A stretch of 64,000 bases of DNA from Oscillatoriales cyanobacterium SM2_2_1 (GTDB lineage: Bacteria; Cyanobacteriota; Cyanobacteriia; Pseudanabaenales; Pseudanabaenaceae), in the NCBI GenBank assembly GCA_012031145.1, contig JAAUUH010000001.1:1-64000 (forward strand), read 5' to 3'. Shown piece after piece: positions 381-23,915 of the stretch. Position numbers and translations under genes: made by a program. Under the pieces are notes generated by a model, which was not told the DNA's origin, searched no databases, and saw only the letters and a program-made list of their open reading frames with translations. Numbering within the stretch: position 1 is the stretch's first letter; each line of letters begins with the position of its first letter.

Positions 381-504
381 GGTTGTTACTCCTAAATTTA
401 TGGGTGGTTGAGGTGAAAGCTATTGAATTGGTTTTCTAGCGATGCGTATCAATTCTTAGGCAACTTAGCTCCCTAGGGTTCCTAGAAGCTAGAGACCAAA
501 GTCC

Positions 505-906
505 CTAGAACCCCCTTACCCGAAGACGCCGGGCATTTTGCTGCAGTTGCTGCTTCTGCTCTGGGGTAAGAATTTGGGTGATGCTTCCCTGGGCACTCTG
601 GAGAATTTGCTGAGTTTGCCCCTGCTGGTCGGCGGTTAAGTTCAATCCCGAAACAGTACTGCGGATATCCGTGCCATTGGCAAGGGCTTGGCGCAATTGG
701 GCTTCCTGGGATGGATCGAGAACCTTCTCAATATCTGCAATCACCTGATCGCTGAGAGCCGTCAGTTGTTGCTGTTGTGTCGCAGTCAGGGTAATGCCCT
801 GGAGGACGGGAAACCGACTCGCAGCGGAGGAAGATTGGGCGATCGCCGCAGAACTGGAAACGGCCGTGATCGCCACGACTGCAAGGCTCCAAAGAATTTG
901 TTTCAT
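505..906 (-). CDS. Small exported Gln-rich protein, signal peptide at MKQILWSLAVVAITAVSSSAAIAQ
   Basis: Internal ATG at 906 gives a clean signal peptide; the longer ORF start is less likely. Confidence 0.65.
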   Translation of the reverse strand: MKQILWSLAVVAITAVSSSAAIAQSSSAASRFPVLQGITLTATQQQQLTALSDQVIADIEKVLDPSQEAQLRQALANGTDIRSTVSGLNLTADQQGQTQQILQSAQGSITQILTPEQKQQLQQNARRLRVRGF

Positions 907-1093
907 GACATCGCCTACGAATGAACTATGCTGGCAGCATAGGAAAATGACAACGGGAAGCCAAGGGAACATAGTCCCGCTTTCCAAAAAAGATTTAGCC
1001 TTCTTGTGGGACGATCGTCCCTTGACAACGCCGTCAGTCCGTTCTTTGATGTCGCTATGGAAGCTGTCGGACATCATAGGAACTGAAGTGAAG

Positions 1094-2254
1094 ATGCTCA
1101 GCCCATCCCTCAAATTGTTTGCTTGGCTAGAGTGGATTTTACTAGCGATGACGGTGATCGCCCAAGGGGCGGGTGCCCGCTATGTCCAGTGGCCATTGCC
1201 CCTAGTGATGGTATCCCTACTGGGAATCGCCCTCTGGATGACCATGGCCCCGCGCCGACAGTCGGTGGCATTTTTGTCGGTGATGGGTGCCACTGCCATA
1301 GTGGCTGTGATGACCTTCAGCGGGCTAATTCTTTTTTATCACTTGCTATTTGTCATTTTGATGATTCGGATTTCCCTCCTGCTGCATGGCTGGTGGCGAT
1401 CGCTAGGGCTTGGCATTTTTTACATCAACTATGCGCTCCTCCAGTATTGGCGGTTTGTGGTTCTCCAATCCCCCCATCAGTTCATTCTGAGGGAGCCCTA
1501 CGCCACGGGGATTGCATTTACGGTGGTGTTCGGTTTTTTGCTGTTATTCCTCCAACTATTGATGGATGCCCTAACCGCTGAGTCCCAAAGTCGCCGAGCC
1601 CTCGCCCTGGCTAATGGACAGTTGCGGGAATATGCCGAGCGCGTGGAGCACCTGTCTGCGGCCCAGGAGCGTAACCGTATTGCCCGGGAGATGCACGATG
1701 CCCTGGGTCATTCCCTGACCATTCTCAATCTGCATTTGGATGCAACCCTCAGACTATGGGATGCTGACCCCCAGGAAGCCCATGACTTGGTTGCCGAAGC
1801 CAAGCAAGTATCGGCCAAGGCATTGGGTGAAGTTCGTTCTGCGATTGCTTCCCTGCGTGAGGATCCCCTAGAGGGGCGTTCCCTATCCATGGGGATCGCC
1901 CGATTATCCCAGGAGTTCTGCCGGGCAACCGGAGTGGAACCCCAGGTAGATCTGGCCATCTTCCAGTCCCTTCCCCCCTCTGTTGAGCGCACAATTTTTC
2001 GGGTGGTTCAGGAAGGTCTGACCAACATTTGCAAACATGCCCATGCCAGCGCTGTGGCGATCGCCATTCGGGAAGGCGCCCAGCACATTGAGATCGACAT
2101 TCGTGACAATGGCAGGGGATTTGATGTGCAGCAAAATATCACAGGCTTTGGGTTACAGGGAATTCGCGAGCGTGTTGAGAGCCTCTGCGGAGCCGTGGAA
2201 TTTCACTCGGCTGTGGGCCAGGGGTGCCACCTCAGAGCAGTGGTGCCGCGATGA
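1094..2254 (+). CDS. NarL-type sensor histidine kinase (multi-TM, HisKA_3, HATPase)
   Basis: AQERNRIAREMHDALGHSLTILNLHL H-box; DNGRGFD and GFGLQGIRERV ATPase motifs; start trimmed to MLSPSLKL. Confidence 0.85.
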   Translation: MLSPSLKLFAWLEWILLAMTVIAQGAGARYVQWPLPLVMVSLLGIALWMTMAPRRQSVAFLSVMGATAIVAVMTFSGLILFYHLLFVILMIRISLLLHGWWRSLGLGIFYINYALLQYWRFVVLQSPHQFILREPYATGIAFTVVFGFLLLFLQLLMDALTAESQSRRALALANGQLREYAERVEHLSAAQERNRIAREMHDALGHSLTILNLHLDATLRLWDADPQEAHDLVAEAKQVSAKALGEVRSAIASLREDPLEGRSLSMGIARLSQEFCRATGVEPQVDLAIFQSLPPSVERTIFRVVQEGLTNICKHAHASAVAIAIREGAQHIEIDIRDNGRGFDVQQNITGFGLQGIRERVESLCGAVEFHSAVGQGCHLRAVVPR

Positions 2255-2886
2255 TTCGGCTCCTTCTGGCCGATGATCAAGACCTGATTCGCCGTGGGCT
2301 AAGGGCGCTCCTCAAAACCGATCCGGAACTCATGGTTGTCGGGGAGGCCGAGAACGGAGCCTTGGCGCACCAGCAGTGCCAAGCCCTTGCTCCGGATGTA
2401 GTGCTCATGGATGTGCGGATGCCGGTCATGGATGGGGTTGCGGCCACGCGCCTAATCCGCCAGGAATTTCCCCTAGTGCGGGTGCTGATCCTGACTACCT
2501 TTGCCGATCAAACCTACGTGGAGCAAGGAATCCGGGCGGGGGCCTCAGGATACCTGCTAAAGGATACCCCCTTTGAGGAACTGACCCAGGCCATTCGCTT
2601 TATTCACCGGGGGTACACCCAAATTGGCCCCGGACTGCTGGAATGCGTCCTCGAGAGCCCACGCCATCCCCAAGCGCCCCCCCAACCCGGCTGGGAGGAA
2701 CTCACCGATCGCGATCACCAAATTATCCAACTTATCGCCCAGGGCATGAGCAACCGCGAAATTGCCCAGACCCTATTCCTCTCCGAAAAGACGGTCAAAA
2801 ATCGCCTGACCCAGATTCTGAGTTGCCTTAACCTGCGCGATCGCACCCAGTTGGCCGTTTCCGTGTGGCAAAAGCGAGAACCCTAG
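2251..2886 (+). CDS. NarL/LuxR-family response regulator
   Basis: REC domain (LLADDQDLIRRGL, DVRMPVMDG) and LuxR HTH (GMSNREIAQTLFLSEKTVKNRL); ATGA overlap with the kinase. Confidence 0.9.
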   Translation: MIRLLLADDQDLIRRGLRALLKTDPELMVVGEAENGALAHQQCQALAPDVVLMDVRMPVMDGVAATRLIRQEFPLVRVLILTTFADQTYVEQGIRAGASGYLLKDTPFEELTQAIRFIHRGYTQIGPGLLECVLESPRHPQAPPQPGWEELTDRDHQIIQLIAQGMSNREIAQTLFLSEKTVKNRLTQILSCLNLRDRTQLAVSVWQKREP

Positions 2887-2954
2887 GCTAAAAATTTGAC
2901 GGGCGCAGTACCGCTGATCCCCCAGGGCTTCTAGGTTGATCTTGATGATGCGCC

Positions 2955-3833
2955 CTAACTAGGCTGTCCGCTATAAAGCCCATGGGCATGGTAAGAACTA
3001 CGCACCAACGGGCCCGACCGCACCTGGGCAAAACCAATCGACCGGGCGATCGCCGCTAACATCCCAAACTCCTCTGGAGTCCAGTATTTTTCCACCGGCA
3101 AATGGGCCAGGGACGGCCGCAAATATTGCCCCAAGGTCACGGCACGACAGCCCACAGAATAAAGATCCCGCAGCGCGGTTTCGATCTCGGCAACGGTTTC
3201 CCCATGGCCCACCATCAGTCCCGACTTCACCAAAATCCTAGGATCCAGCCGCGCCACCGTTGCCAGCACCGAGAGCGATCGCCCATACTTAGCGCCACGC
3301 CGCACCCGTCCCTGCAGCCGTTCTACGGTTTCCAGATTGTGGTTATAGCAAACCGGTTGCGCCGCCACCACGGTTTCGATACAGGTGCGATCGCCCCGAA
3401 AATCCGGCGTCAGCACCTCCAAAAGCACCCCCGGTCGCTCTGCCCGCACCGCCGCCATCACCCGCACAAACCAGCCTGCCCCCTGATCCGCCAAGTCATC
3501 CCGCGCCACCGAAGTCAGCACCACATAATCCAAACCTAGCAGAGCCACCGCCTCTGCCACCCGCTGTGGCTCCTCCGGATCCAACGGCATCGGCGCATGG
3601 CCCTTATCCACCTGACAAAAAGCACAGGCCCGGGTGCAGGTTGCCCCCATCAACAAAAACGTGGCCGTCCGCTGGGCGTAGCATTCCGCCCGGTTAGGGC
3701 ATCGCCCTTCCTCGCAGATGGTGTGAATCTGGCGCTGCTTTATAATTTGCTGCACCGCCGAAATGTCCTCCGTAGTGCCAATGGAGGGGCGCAGCCAGTC
3801 AGGAAGGCGAAGCGAAGCTTGGGAATTGGTCAT
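2955..3833 (-). CDS. lipA: Lipoyl synthase
   Basis: [12 protein letters not shown] and CTRACAFC radical-SAM motifs. Confidence 0.93.
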
Positions 3834-4598: not shown

Positions 4599-5039
4599 TT
4601 GATTTTAGCGGTGATTGCGGTGCTGCCAATAATTGCGGTTTTACCTTTGCCCAATGCTCAAGGGGATTATTTGCCGCCCATCCGTCGTACTCCTGTGCAT
4701 CGACTGTGGCAAGTCGTGGATCGCGACCCAGCGGGACTAAATTGCCGCATGGCTGCCGAATTTCCGCCGGGAACCCTCTGGTTTGAGACGGCACGAGGGC
4801 AAGTTTTGTTAACGAGCGATCGCCACCCCATCGGTCAATGGCCCGTAGTTGCGACCCTCAAGCGCGGGGCCATGGTTCAAGCCTTTAGTGGCAACCTCGG
4901 AGCCCAACTGATCATCCGCGATCGCCAGAAAAAGCCATGGCTGCCGGTACTGGTGGAACGTTCCAGGGGTGGGGTGCACTGCTTTGTGCGGGCCAATAGC
5001 AAATTGATCCAACCCGCTGGCAAAGAAACCCGTTTCTAG
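4599..5039 (+). CDS. Exported hypothetical protein, possibly SH3-like
   Basis: ORF with hydrophobic leader just after the upstream regulator; TTG or GTG start. Confidence 0.5.
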   Translation: MILAVIAVLPIIAVLPLPNAQGDYLPPIRRTPVHRLWQVVDRDPAGLNCRMAAEFPPGTLWFETARGQVLLTSDRHPIGQWPVVATLKRGAMVQAFSGNLGAQLIIRDRQKKPWLPVLVERSRGGVHCFVRANSKLIQPAGKETRF

Positions 5040-5136
5040 GGGTTGTGAGCACTGAGTTATACGGTTCATAGACTAGAACTATCTGTGTATCAAACTGTGT
5101 ATTAAAGTTCCATTTTTTGTAATGAGGTTGGACTTC

Positions 5137-5970
5137 ATGAACGGTGGTTATACCTCAAATGAACTTGCTCGGCACTTGGAAACAGCAAAGCGTATTTTAA
5201 ATAAAATTTATAGTTGGTGGGCTATCGGAGAACAAGTCCGTGGCGGTGCAGGAACAATTCCTCCTGTTGCTACTCTTATTCTTCCAGATACAGAATGGAA
5301 TGACTTGAATATAAACCAACAGATTAGCCTTACGTTCTACGCCGAAAACATGGTTGATGATGTACGAAGTAATCCTGAAAAGTATCTAACCATTTCACCT
5401 TCTGCACCCATTTATTCATCCATGCTTGCCAATTGTCGCCGTATCAATGATGGCTTCTGGGAAATTGTTATCAGCAGATTTGTCGATGAAGATTCTAGGA
5501 AATTAATGGTTGATAAAAGTATTGTTAGAGGTGACAAATTTTGGGATTATGAACAAGATAAGTTTGGAATTCGTGCTTCTACTTTTCGAGAAACCACAGA
5601 AGAATCAAATCCTCCAAACATAATTCCTAACCGGAAGGATGCGGTTGTTGATATTCGCAAAATTCGTGATTACTGCCTTAATCTAAACCATAATGAACTT
5701 AATCTAAACCATGATGAAGGTAAACACAAGGCACGATTATTTCCCTCGATTTTGGGTATGACTTCAGCTGATGCTGAAAAACTCCGCCAAATCCTTCTTG
5801 AAATCGTTGAATCACAAGTAGCTAAACCAGGACGACGCGATGAGTTTGGGCAACGTTACACTATAGATTTCAAGCTTGAATGGCAAGGCAAAAGTGCAAA
5901 TATAAGAAGTGGCCGGATTATTGAGCATGGTTCCAACATTCCAAAACTGACAACTTGCTATCCTTTATAG
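5137..5970 (+). CDS. Hypothetical protein with DUF6883-like C-terminal domain
   Basis: C-terminus GKHKARLFPSILGMTSADAEKLRQILLE...YTIDFKLEW...SGRIIEHGSNIPKLTTCYPL; SD-like ATGAGGTTGG before ATG 5137; AT-richer than surroundings. Confidence 0.65.
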   Translation: MNGGYTSNELARHLETAKRILNKIYSWWAIGEQVRGGAGTIPPVATLILPDTEWNDLNINQQISLTFYAENMVDDVRSNPEKYLTISPSAPIYSSMLANCRRINDGFWEIVISRFVDEDSRKLMVDKSIVRGDKFWDYEQDKFGIRASTFRETTEESNPPNIIPNRKDAVVDIRKIRDYCLNLNHNELNLNHDEGKHKARLFPSILGMTSADAEKLRQILLEIVESQVAKPGRRDEFGQRYTIDFKLEWQGKSANIRSGRIIEHGSNIPKLTTCYPL

Positions 5971-5989
5971 GCTCTAGGGGTAATATGCA

Positions 5990-6238
5990 ATGACAAACAA
6001 CACAATTAATTTGCTCGATGTAGTAGCGTTGATAACAGATCTTCCTGAATGTAATTTATGGCAAGGTCAAGTCGGTACAGTCGTTGAAATTCTAGCTACT
6101 GGAAAGGCTTTTGAAGTAGAGTTTAGCGACCGTAGTGGACGCACGTATGAATCCCTCGGTTTACGACCAGAACAAATTATGGTGCTACATTTCGAGCCAG
6201 TTTCTCCTAGTTCAACATCTGGAGTGGTTACGGCGTAA
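5990..6238 (+). CDS. DUF4926-like small protein
   Basis: LLDVVALITDLPECNLWQGQVGTVVEIL...FEVEFSDRSGRTYESLGLRPEQIMVL. Confidence 0.75.
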   Translation: MTNNTINLLDVVALITDLPECNLWQGQVGTVVEILATGKAFEVEFSDRSGRTYESLGLRPEQIMVLHFEPVSPSSTSGVVTA

Positions 6239-6241
6239 ACC

Positions 6242-6327
6242 GTATAACAAACGGGCTGGAGCGGACTTCTGGAAAATCTTGGTGTTGTTATCAAGGAATT
6301 TGTAGCCGCTCAGCCGGAACGTTGTAT
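6242..6327 (+). repeat. attC-like integron recombination site
   Basis: GTATAAC-AAACG-GGCTGGAGCGG ... CCGCTCAGCC-GGAAC-GTTGTAT: R and L boxes with one unpaired base in the L stem. Confidence 0.6.
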
Positions 6328-6436: not shown

Positions 6437-6853
6437 CTAGGAAACGTCATCCGTCGGCTGTTCCCCGGAGCCTGCCTCGGGATCGGTTGGCTTTTGCAGC
6501 CGTTCCTGTTCAATTTGGCTCAGCAATGAAAGAATCCGCACCCCCCGGTCAAAGGATTGATCTATCTTGAAGCTGACTTCGGGAACGCGACGTAAGCTCA
6601 ACCGCTGCCCCAGTTGATGGCGGACAAACCCGGTCGCTGATGCTAGGGCGTTCATGGTTTCCTTTTGGGCCTCTTCGGTGCCGTAAATACTGACAAAAAT
6701 GCGGGCGTGTTGCAGGTCTCCCGAAACTTCGACGTCAGTGACGCTAACCATGCCCATGCCGACCCGATCATCCTTAATATCGCGCAGGATCATGCTGCTC
6801 ACTTCGCGCTTGATCTGCTCCGCAACTCTGGCAACGCGACGGGTAGTGGCCAT
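6437..6853 (-). CDS. rbfA: 30S ribosome-binding factor A
   Basis: [54 protein letters not shown]. Confidence 0.93.
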
Positions 6854-12516: not shown

Positions 12517-12604
12517 ACATAACGTCTGAACTCACCCGCCTGCAACAAGCTGGGAGCCCTGTCCAACAATCTACCCCAAGGTCGGGTGCAGTGACTTGTT
12601 ATGT
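12517..12604 (+). repeat. attC-like element
   Basis: ACATAAC-GTCTG-AACTCACCCGCC ... GGTCGGGTGCAGTGACTT-GTTATGT: paired arms with an unpaired C. Confidence 0.5.
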
Positions 12605-12939
12605 TGGGCCACCCATCTTTCCCAGAAGCATCAGGATCCTAATTGCCCAGCCCCCCAGGGATCCCTTATCCCATAAGTCAGCTATCTATCGGGGCTGGCA
12701 ACATAACTATGTATTAGCGGAAATATTCCGTATATAAACCCTAACAGAGGTAAACATATACAACCTCTCCGGATAAGACAACTAAAACAGTGAAATATCC
12801 AGAAACTTTCCGGGTATCACCCCCAAGCAGAGTGAATATGCTGAAACATACTGCGCAAAGTCTCTAGACCAACCCTTAAGGTTGTAAGCACTACTTATTT
12901 CGTGGTGCCTAAGTTATCTACCGTCGCCATCCAACTAAC

Positions 12940-18123: not shown

Positions 18124-19077
18124 ATGACCTGGCGTGACGAAGAAATCAACCTCCTCAAAACCCTCAGCTATCGCCTCCATGAACTGTCGGTGTTGGTGGT
18201 TGAAGACGACAAGGTGATGGCAACCATTACCTCAAAGATTCTGCTGCGGGAAGGCTACCGGGTAGAGGTGGTTACCAACGGGGATGAAGCTTGGCAAAAA
18301 ATTATGCACCAGCCACCCGACCTGATTATTAGTGACTGGTCAATGCCCCAAACTTCAGGACTGGCCCTGTGTCAACGGATTAAGCTCAACGTTGAGCATG
18401 TCCATCTCCAGTCGATCTATTTCATCATGCAAACAGTTCATGATAGTAGTCAACATCGGGAATTAGCGCTCCAAGCCGGGGCCGATGAATTTCTGACCAA
18501 GCCCGTCGATCCGACGGAGATTAAGGCGCGGGTGTTGGCAGGATTTCGCTACACACTGCTGCGTAAGTCCCTAGAAATTGCCAACGGGCGGATCAGTGCC
18601 TACCGATCGCAGCTTTTTGCCGTTCAGATGGTGTCGCCAGAGTGTCGGCTGCTGAACCTACGGGCCTTAACTAAGGCTTTGCCCCACTTCAAGGAGCGCA
18701 TGCAGATCCAACAGGGAACCTTGGGTGCGATGCGAGCTGTGGTGCAAGATTGGGGGGCGATCGCCCAGGGATATCCGTCCCATATTCAAAATGAGCTGGT
18801 GGAGGCCGTCTCCGGTCGGCTGCTCAACCAAATTCCTAGCCATGGACTAACCTATTATCTTCAACAGGGGGTGTTTCTCTGTCTAATCCCCGATGCTACG
18901 GAACTCCTTTGCGCCGAGACAACCCAACGCATTCACCACAGTATTTCTTCTCGCTCCGTGGTGGTGTCCTTTAATTTAAGTTTTTTGGTACTGGTGGAGG
19001 TCACCAGCACCCTTTATTTCGGCCCTAAGCTCGATGAACTCACCGTCGATCACTTGCTGGCGTCTGGGCCCCAGTAA
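18124..19077 (+). CDS. Response regulator with C-terminal extension
   Basis: LSVLVVEDDKVMATITSKILLREGY; LIISDWSMPQTSGL; FLTKPVDP. Confidence 0.85.
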   Translation: MTWRDEEINLLKTLSYRLHELSVLVVEDDKVMATITSKILLREGYRVEVVTNGDEAWQKIMHQPPDLIISDWSMPQTSGLALCQRIKLNVEHVHLQSIYFIMQTVHDSSQHRELALQAGADEFLTKPVDPTEIKARVLAGFRYTLLRKSLEIANGRISAYRSQLFAVQMVSPECRLLNLRALTKALPHFKERMQIQQGTLGAMRAVVQDWGAIAQGYPSHIQNELVEAVSGRLLNQIPSHGLTYYLQQGVFLCLIPDATELLCAETTQRIHHSISSRSVVVSFNLSFLVLVEVTSTLYFGPKLDELTVDHLLASGPQ

Positions 19078-19897
19078 ACCGCTCAATACCCGACCAATCA
19101 CGATAGCTGGCGATCGCCTCGTAACCTGCCTCCTGGAGCAGCAGTCGTACTGGTTCTGCCTGTCCAGCCATGTGCTCAATTAGCCAATAACCCTGGGGTT
19201 TCAGCAAAGTCTGTCCCGCTCCAATGAGGTGGCGAATCGCCGACAGTCCATCGACCCCGCCATCGAGGGCTAGGTGGGGTTCATGGTGCTGCACCTCCGG
19301 CGCTAAGCTGCTCACCATGGCCGTGGGAATGTAGGGCGGATTGGCTACGATCCCGGCAATCTGTCCGCGCCATGGCTCTAGGGGTGTGAACCAGTTGCCT
19401 TGGTGCAGGGTAATGCGATCGCCAAGACCGAAGTTCGTAATATTCTCTTGGGCGACCGCCAAGGCTGCGCCGCTAATATCAATGGCATGTACGCTCATTT
19501 GCCCAAAGACCCGTGCCAAACCCAAAGCGATCGCCCCGCTGCCCGTTCCCAAGTCTACCCATATCCCCGTGGCCACCAGTCCCACCCAGTCCGCCACGAG
19601 ATCAATCATTAATTCTGTCTCGGGGCGAGGAATTAAGACTGCGGGCGTTACCTTCAACCGCATATCCCGCCACTCACACCAGCCTAGGAGATACTGGACA
19701 GGCACCCGGTTTGCGACCCGCTGCTGCCACAGGTTTGGCAAGTTTTGCCATGGAACAGTATCCGGAACCGGTCGCCGCAATTTCAGATCTAGGCGGGACA
19801 AGCCCAGCCCTTGGGCTAGGTACTCCAATTCATATTCAGGAATACAATGAACCGCCGCCTCCGCAGCCGCCCGGTCCCACCACTGCCAAAACTCCAT
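19040..19897 (-). CDS. prmC: Release factor glutamine methyltransferase
   Basis: VLIPRPETELMIDL; DLGTGSGAIALGLA; VANPPYIP. Confidence 0.93.
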   Translation of the reverse strand: MEFWQWWDRAAAEAAVHCIPEYELEYLAQGLGLSRLDLKLRRPVPDTVPWQNLPNLWQQRVANRVPVQYLLGWCEWRDMRLKVTPAVLIPRPETELMIDLVADWVGLVATGIWVDLGTGSGAIALGLARVFGQMSVHAIDISGAALAVAQENITNFGLGDRITLHQGNWFTPLEPWRGQIAGIVANPPYIPTAMVSSLAPEVQHHEPHLALDGGVDGLSAIRHLIGAGQTLLKPQGYWLIEHMAGQAEPVRLLLQEAGYEAIASYRDWSGIERFTGAQTPASDRR

Positions 19898-22520: not shown

Positions 22521-23915
22521 CTAGGACTGAGCGTCAATTTCGCCCATCTTCAACACTGGCTCCGTCTTGCGGTTGATGCCCTTTTCAAAGCCAGCCACTG
22601 CTGCTCGGGCACGTCCAGCATGCCACAGGTGACCGACCAAGAAAAAGAAGAACAACACGAAGTGAGAAGTGGATAACCAAGAGCGGGGAGACACAAAGTT
22701 CACCGCATTAATTTCCGTAATCACACCACCCACGGAGTTGAGCGAGCCCAAGGGCGCATGGGTCATATACTCCGCAGCGCGACGAATCTGCCATGGCTGA
22801 ACATCATTCTTCAGCTTGTCAATATCCAAACCACTGGGTCCCCGTAGGGGTTCTAACCAAGGGGCTCGTACATCCCAGAATCGCATGGTTTCTCCACCAA
22901 AGATAATTTCTCCAGAGGGAGAGCGCATCAAGTATTTACCCAAACCGGTCGGTCCTTGGGAGGTGCCAATGTTGGCACCCAACTTTTGGTCGCGAACTAG
23001 GTAGGTAAACGCTTGGGATTGGGAAGCTTCAGGGCCAGTAGGGCCGTAGAACTCACTGGGATACACAGTGTTGTTGAACCAGACGTAACAAGTAGCAATA
23101 AATGCCATCAAGGACAGCGCACCCAAGCTGTAGGAAAGGTAAGCCTCTCCAGACCACACGAAGGCTCGGCGAGCCCAAGCAAAGGGCTTGGTAGCAATGT
23201 GCCAAATGCCGCCGGAAATGCAGATAAATCCAATCCAAATGTGACCACCAACCACATCCTCAAGGTTGCTCACCCCGATAATGTTGCCAGAACCACCAAA
23301 GGGAGAGCTCAGCACATAGCCGAAAATCACAAGGGGGTTCAGGGTTGGATTGGTGATCACACGGACATCACCACCGCCGGGTGCCCATGTGTCATAAAGA
23401 CCACCAAAAAACATGGCCTTAAACACCAGAAGAAAAGCACCTAAGCCCAGCAAGATCAGGTGGTAACCCAAAATGTTGGTCATTTGGTTTTTGTCTTTCC
23501 AGTCGTAGCCAAAAAATGTCGAGTAGTTCTCTAGAATCTCTGGCCCGCGGATGGCATGGTAAATGCCACCTAAGCCCAGAACGGCAGAGGAGATTAGGTG
23601 AAGCACGCCAACGACAAAGAAGGGAAATGTGTCAACTACTTCACCACCGGGGCCCATGCCCCAGCCTTGGGTTGCTAGGTGGGGTAACAGAATTAAACCT
23701 TGCTCATACATCGGCTTTTCGGGCACGAAGTGAGCCAATTCAAATAGGGTCATCGCGCCAGCCCAAAACACAATCAGCCCAGCATGGGCCACATGGGCAC
23801 CAAGAAGCTTTCCAGAAAGGTTGATCAGGCGAGCATTTCCCGACCACCAAGCAAAACCTGTGGTGTCAATTGAGCGACCACCGACTCCTAGAGAGTTAAA
23901 ATTAGCTGTTGTCAC
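22521..23915 (-). CDS. psbC: Photosystem II CP43
   Basis: [71 protein letters not shown] start with own GGAG. Confidence 0.96.

What the first reader, a model, noticed from the sequence alone, without database searches (positions are those of the whole stretch)
5056..6327. Integron-like gene cassette carrying a DUF6883-like/DUF4926-like pair
Seen directly: downstream of 6238, an 86-nt element GTATAAC-AAACG-GGCTGGAGCGG ... CCGCTCAGCC-GGAAC-GTTGTAT has attC architecture (R, spacer and L boxes, one unpaired base in the L stem). About 1.2 kb upstream, GTTATACGG (5056-5064) is the exact reverse complement of CCGTATAAC (6240-6248), as expected for a cassette that starts with its own split attC end. 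The enclosed DNA is AT-richer and carries two co-directional small genes. No integrase is visible, so it would be a solitary chromosomal cassette. Inference: the pair is a mobile, possibly toxin/immunity-type unit.
Basis: partly seen in the sequence, partly recalled or inferred. Interest (0 to 1): 0.82.

Follow-up and report, generated by a model that had tools for sequence, protein, structure and literature searches.

The report
Lone integron cassette with toxin-like pair
A cyanobacterial chromosome carries a single mobile integron gene cassette, inserted on its own between two ordinary genes, whose two tightly linked genes look like an RNA-cutting toxin and its partner; the mobility is well supported by sequence, the toxin function is a prediction.

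Summary
Window 6242-6327 is an attC site: a covariance model built only from other attC sites finds it at 53 bits (E=1e-11), while the best non-attC match in the window scores 10.5 bits. The left end (5056-5066) matches the attC end over 11 nt. The cassette is 40% GC in a 55% GC window and is absent between the same genes in a same-genus genome, UBA999. This is a solitary integron cassette, probably inserted at an attG-type genomic site.

The gene pair is a real module: DUF4926 follows DUF6883 in 81 of 81 testable loci, and an attC directly follows the pair in at least 10 other genomes. The predicted DUF6883 fold best matches the tRNase toxin CdiA-CT of Klebsiella 342 (TM 0.60-0.70). An RNase toxin with DUF4926 as antitoxin or immunity protein is the best guess; activity is untested, and this copy has a unique in-frame 21-bp duplication at the predicted catalytic histidine.

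The parts
5057..6321 (+). integron gene cassette (recombination points G^TT at 5056/5057 and 6321/6322)
   Evidence: attC model, 11-nt inverse match of the two ends and GC 40% against 55%, absent in G001
5056..5066 (+). left cassette end GTTATACGGTT, inverse match of 6238-6248
   Evidence: GTTATACGG is unique in the window
5122..5970 (+). ORF1, 282 aa: rare N-terminal part plus C-terminal DUF6883
   Evidence: (PF21814, E=1.5e-20)
5626..5964 (+). DUF6883 domain, predicted BECR-type RNase toxin fold
5677..5718 (+). 21-bp in-frame tandem duplication (20 of 21 bases alike) in the predicted catalytic histidine loop, seen only in this copy
   Evidence: sequence; alignments
5990..6238 (+). ORF2, 82 aa, DUF4926, proposed antitoxin/immunity partner
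   Evidence: PF16277, E=2.2e-26; adjacent in 81 of 81 loci
6242..6327 (+). attC site (R' 6242-6248, L'' 6254-6264, L' 6306-6315, R'' 6321-6327)

Best explanation
5057-6321 is a complete integron gene cassette sitting alone in the chromosome of a Pseudanabaenaceae-type cyanobacterium (GTDB family), a relative of UBA999. Most likely mechanism: the genome's integron integrase excised the cassette as a circle from an array, or received it from outside. It then recombined the folded bottom strand of attC with a simple genomic G^TT site (an attG-type target) in the gap between an SH3-like gene (4599-5039) and rbfA (6437-6853, minus strand), breaking neither. The cargo is a two-gene DUF6883-DUF4926 module, common in cyanobacteria and present in a few other phyla, that has repeatedly been a cassette. 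DUF6883 most likely is a BECR-fold (colicin D / CdiA-CT-like) RNase toxin domain and DUF4926 its antitoxin or immunity protein; such a pair would stabilise the cassette or protect against neighbours. Shown by computation: attC, cassette ends, integrase gene in the genome, empty locus in a relative, strict linkage, recurrence as a cassette, fold similarity. Inferred: insertion by IntI at an attG-type site, present mobility, toxicity, tRNA as target, neutralisation by DUF4926.
For: attC by an independent model with covarying stems. Matching cassette ends and GC contrast. intI on contig C121, about 34 attC sites on 18 contigs. Gene order without cassette in G001 and no attC on that contig. DUF4926 next to DUF6883 in 81 of 81 loci. 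attC right after the pair in G001, G020 and G042 and in 9-10 of 80 named loci; half attC in 16 of 82, 0.09 expected. DUF6883 model, pLDDT 82, best PDB match CdiA-CT Kp342, TM 0.60-0.70. Residue order K-x3-Y, H, [RK]-x2-T resembles the Kp342 and EC3006 active sites (PMC9086364).
Against: No excision or circle observed. The exact empty junction is not aligned base by base. Foldseek E-values are modest (1.7e-3), no PDB sequence match exists, and residue correspondence rests on order and spacing only. The 21-bp duplication may impair this copy. No trafficking domain or clear promoter was found.
Confidence: 0.78

Rival explanations
1. The cassette is the last remnant of an old integron array that once stood here (a decayed CALIN), not a single insertion at an attG-type site.
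For: The genome has real arrays and clusters, and half-decayed attC sites are seen behind the same gene pair elsewhere.
Against: One attC only, close to ordinary genes on both sides (17 nt and 115 nt), and an empty gap of about 30 nt in G001; the window's second attC lies 6 kb away on the other strand.
Confidence: 0.12
2. The pair is not a toxin and its partner but an RNA-binding or RNA-processing housekeeping pair that happens to travel as a cassette.
For: DUF6883 is only fold-similar to toxins; DUF4926 has no known function; no experiment exists. Stand-alone short pairs are common in cyanobacteria.
Against: Strict toxin-then-small-partner linkage, plasmid and cassette carriage, scattered tree, top fold match to a tRNase toxin twice.
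Confidence: 0.3
3. The cassette is real but dead: the ends are intact, yet it no longer moves and the toxin is inactivated by the 21-bp duplication.
For: Unique in-frame duplication in the predicted catalytic loop; R boxes of the right end are imperfectly paired with G-T pairs.
Against: Both ORFs are open; the bottom strand still folds well; the duplication keeps the histidine motif.
Confidence: 0.3
4. Chance hairpin or transcription terminator between convergent genes.
For: It lies between genes on opposite strands.
Against: Independent model E=1e-11, covarying stems, no terminator-like pattern there, matching left end 1.2 kb away, same arrangement behind the same pair elsewhere.
Confidence: 0.01

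Closest known systems
Single attC lacking integrase (SALIN; term in PMC12690207) / cassette at a genomic attG site (Loot et al. 2024, doi 10.1038/s41564-023-01548-y, not held here; cited in PMC12444791, PMC12901181, PMC11023631)
   Same: One cassette with its attC between ordinary chromosomal genes, G^TT at the junction.
   Different: Natural cyanobacterial case with a two-gene DUF6883-DUF4926 cargo; insertion inferred, not observed.
Cyanobacterial attC sites (taxon-specific model in PMC8352920)
   Same: Same two-box attC architecture; a phylum-specific attC model for Cyanobacteria was published.
   Different: That model was not available here; I built my own from this genome and one relative.
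CdiA-CT/CdiI of Klebsiella pneumoniae 342 (PDB 6cp9) and of E. coli 3006 (6cp8, 6vek), BECR-fold tRNases
   Same: Predicted fold over nearly the whole domain, helices then four strands; similar order of conserved K, Y, H, R/K, T; small partner gene directly downstream.
   Different: About 15-17% identity; no CdiA-type secretion module; partner is DUF4926, not CdiI; activity unknown.
RelE/HigB/BrnT-type toxin-antitoxin cassettes of integrons (my knowledge)
   Same: Small toxin-partner pairs carried as cassettes, toxin gene first as in HigBA and BrnTA.
   Different: DUF6883 and DUF4926 belong to no such described family; only weak fold matches to HigB2 and RelE.

Membership tests
Integron gene cassette | attC with R and L boxes, unpaired base, foldable bottom strand | tested here: met
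Integron gene cassette | left end derived from its own attC (G^TT plus inverse match to R') | tested here: met
   11-nt match
Integron gene cassette | gene(s) oriented towards and ending close to attC | tested here: met
   ORF2 stops at 6238, attC starts at 6242
Integron gene cassette | integron integrase available in the cell | tested here: met
   TIGR02249 445 bits on C121
Integron gene cassette | excision and integration by IntI | not testable with these tools
   needs bench assay or reads
SALIN / attG-type insertion | single attC away from other attC and from intI | tested here: met
   only other attC in the window is 6 kb away on the other strand; intI on another contig; linkage of contigs unknown
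SALIN / attG-type insertion | cassette-free homologous locus in relatives | tested here: met
   G001 gene order without cassette
SALIN / attG-type insertion | exact recipient site with G^TT seen empty | tested here: inconclusive
   intergenic region too diverged in G001
Type II toxin-antitoxin / toxin-immunity pair | conserved tightly linked two-gene unit | tested here: met
   81 of 81 loci, gap about 18 nt
Type II toxin-antitoxin / toxin-immunity pair | toxicity relieved by the partner | not testable with these tools
   bench assay needed
BECR-fold RNase toxin | BECR fold | tested here: met
   predicted model only; best PDB matches CdiA-CT Kp342
BECR-fold RNase toxin | catalytic residues | tested here: inconclusive
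   conserved K, Y, H, [RK], T in similar order; not superposed; histidine loop duplicated in this copy
Polymorphic (secreted, contact-delivered) toxin | N-terminal trafficking module | tested here: not met
   ORF1 and the other fusions examined show no Pfam domain but DUF6883 over cut-off; stand-alone forms of about 110 aa are common

The most novel reading that the evidence does not exclude
DUF6883-DUF4926 is an undescribed family of BECR-fold tRNase toxin-antitoxin pairs that integrons have picked up many times in cyanobacteria. Its toxin gene gains alternative N-terminal domains, and single cassettes carrying it settle at attG-type sites across cyanobacterial chromosomes.
Probability: 0.5. 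Interest if true: 0.62.

Novelty: new member of a known kind. Interest (0 to 1): 0.5.

Why it matters
It is a clean natural example of a solitary integron cassette in a cyanobacterium whose genome also keeps a full-length integron integrase gene, a setting in which attG-type insertion outside the laboratory can be tested. It also gives two widespread, unstudied protein families (DUF6883, DUF4926) a testable function: RNase toxin and partner. If right, a common cyanobacterial gene pair becomes a known toxin-antitoxin family, and its repeated appearance as a cassette ties the spread of such pairs to integrons in this phylum.

Tried and rejected
Chance hairpin or terminator: rejected. 'No integrase': true of the window only. 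Rfam: only IsrR and a tRNA in the window, no attC match. A test of left ends of all 35 candidate attC sites by longest inverse match was noisy for array members, where only 7-9 nt pair; it was clear for the window cassette and several others (one search failed part-way). A first regular expression for half attC sites was badly written (1 of 82) and was replaced (16 of 82). The replacement was written after looking at the sequences, so its excess is descriptive. Weak Pfam match of ORF1 to Glyco_hydro_98C (E=0.044) and weak PDB sequence matches were taken as noise. PADLOC: no match for either ORF. Structure of the N-terminal part: low confidence, not interpreted. No held paper on DUF6883, one passing mention of DUF4926. 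The attG paper itself is not held; only citing papers were read.

Full report
OBSERVATION. It has the two-box attC architecture, with equal 5-nt spacers and one unpaired G in the L stem; that G is invariant in all nine attC sites aligned. The bottom strand folds better than all 200 shuffles, the top strand less clearly. The left end matches the attC end over 11 nt, not 9. The DNA between is 40% GC in a 55% GC window.

INDEPENDENT attC TEST. I scanned the sequence then held with a descriptor of R and L boxes. The window site came first, and sites were found on two other contigs of the same genome, C121 and C38. From seven sites outside the window (six from this genome, one from a Pseudanabaena) I built a covariance model. 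It finds exactly two strong sites in the window: 6242-6327 plus strand (53.3 bits, E=1e-11) and 12517-12604 minus strand (55 bits); the third match has 10.5 bits. The stems covary: 91.5% of cells pair, 22 double changes against 8.7 in shuffles, and sliding the pairing by one base destroys it.

THE GENOME HAS AN INTEGRON. The held assembly (3.1 Mb, 185 contigs) encodes an integron integrase on contig C121: TIGR02249 445 bits against a cut-off of 265. It stands next to a cassette with a reverse transcriptase matching the defence-associated class UG21 (484 bits) that ends in an attC. The model finds 34 attC sites at E<=1e-3 on 18 contigs: an array of nine on C38, smaller clusters on C39, C79, C32, C54 and C182, and several solitary ones. 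Because the assembly is fragmented, sites near contig ends may belong to arrays. Relatives are similar: 30 of 34 have attC sites and 25 of 59 have an integrase match over the cut-off.

EMPTY LOCUS. In the same-genus genome G001 the order response regulator - SH3-like protein - rbfA is kept, with about 30 nt between the last two genes and no cassette, and no attC in the 8.7-kb contig. Joined window flanks align across the genes, but not base by base inside the gap. So presence/absence is shown; the exact recipient junction is inferred (CACTGAG|TTGTATTGAG). G001 itself carries the DUF6883-DUF4926 pair at another place, followed by an attC and with a different N-terminal part.

THE GENE PAIR. ORF1 ends in DUF6883 and ORF2 is DUF4926. 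In 81 of 81 loci with room for it, DUF4926 follows DUF6883, usually after about 18 nt. The loci include Chloroflexota, Planctomycetota, Gemmatimonadota and plasmids of Stanieria and Rubrobacter. An attC begins within about 35 nt of the DUF4926 stop in G001, G020 and G042 and in nine to ten of 80 named loci (UBA999 and 'Roaring Creek' occur in both sets). The 5' half of an attC is there in 16 of 82 loci, 0.09 expected. In G020 the pair sits in a stretch with five attC sites. On a tree of 83 pairs the cassette label is scattered: 11 changes for 11 cassettes, at least 5 forced by well-supported branches. This suggests repeated capture or loss; attC sites missed by my small model would lower that number.

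N-TERMINAL PART. The first 165 aa of ORF1 occur in 7 of 393 genomes of the class. One of them (L191, G086) has the same fusion plus DUF4926 without a detectable attC. At least three unrelated N-terminal parts are fused to DUF6883 in different genomes; none is a trafficking module recognised by Pfam. A separate small gene on the G020 cassette resembles Imm33 weakly (20.5 bits, below the cut-off).

FOLD. AlphaFold2 models DUF6883 with pLDDT 82. The four best PDB matches are chains of 6cp9, the CdiA-CT/CdiI complex of Klebsiella pneumoniae 342 (TM 0.60-0.70, probability 1.00, E from 1.7e-3), then EC3006; HigB2 and RelE appear lower. The listing does not name the molecule of each chain; length (109-119) and topology fit the toxin. 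A second model gave the same top match. A review (PMC9086364) gives Kp342 as a BECR-fold tRNase with active site K157, Y160, H170, R252, T255 and EC3006 with K204, Y208, H256, R260, T330. The DUF6883 family keeps K-x3-Y, then H, then [RK]-x2-T near the C terminus; in ORF1 these are K180, Y184, H197, K275, T278. That assignment rests on order and spacing only. The window copy alone has a 21-bp tandem duplication (5677-5718) that repeats the histidine loop in frame, so this copy may be changed in activity.

EXPRESSION. No sigma-70-like promoter was found on the plus strand of the cassette. The pair is co-directional with the SH3-like gene upstream and might be read from there; the scan is too simple to exclude a promoter.

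VERDICT. The cassette is about as sure as sequence can make it; SALIN / attG-type insertion is the natural reading. Toxin-antitoxin or toxin-immunity function is likely but unproven. It is a new member of known kinds (integron cassettes, BECR toxin pairs) with a so far unstudied protein pair.

Noticed in passing
window 12517-12707, minus strand: A second attC (12517-12604, 55 bits) with a 9-nt inverse match about 100 nt upstream: it looks like a tiny cassette of about 190 bp without an ORF, inserted alone near the dam-like methylase gene.
   Followed up: partly
L030 (G000:C121) 408-3784: The integron integrase gene of this genome is followed by a cassette with a reverse transcriptase of the defence-associated class RT_UG21 (484 bits), ending in an attC.
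   Followed up: partly
L032/L094 (G000:C38) 65-22207: An array of nine attC sites, no integrase seen on the stretch read. By my reading the cassettes include a histidine-methyltransferase (EgtD-like) operon of 3 kb, PIN/VapBC-like pairs and a DUF433/DUF5615-like pair.
   Followed up: no
L088 (G000:C51) contig 18925-19872: An N-terminal fragment of an integron integrase gene lies beside a solitary attC at 19787-19872: remnant of a second integron.
   Followed up: no
window 5677-5718: 21-bp in-frame tandem duplication at the predicted catalytic histidine, absent from all aligned relatives.
   Followed up: partly
L133, L147, L164 against L008, L150 against window, L191: At least three unrelated N-terminal parts are fused to DUF6883, without known domains.
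   Followed up: partly
window 23315-23501: IsrR antisense RNA (Rfam RF01419, 180 bits), consistent with a cyanobacterium.
   Followed up: no
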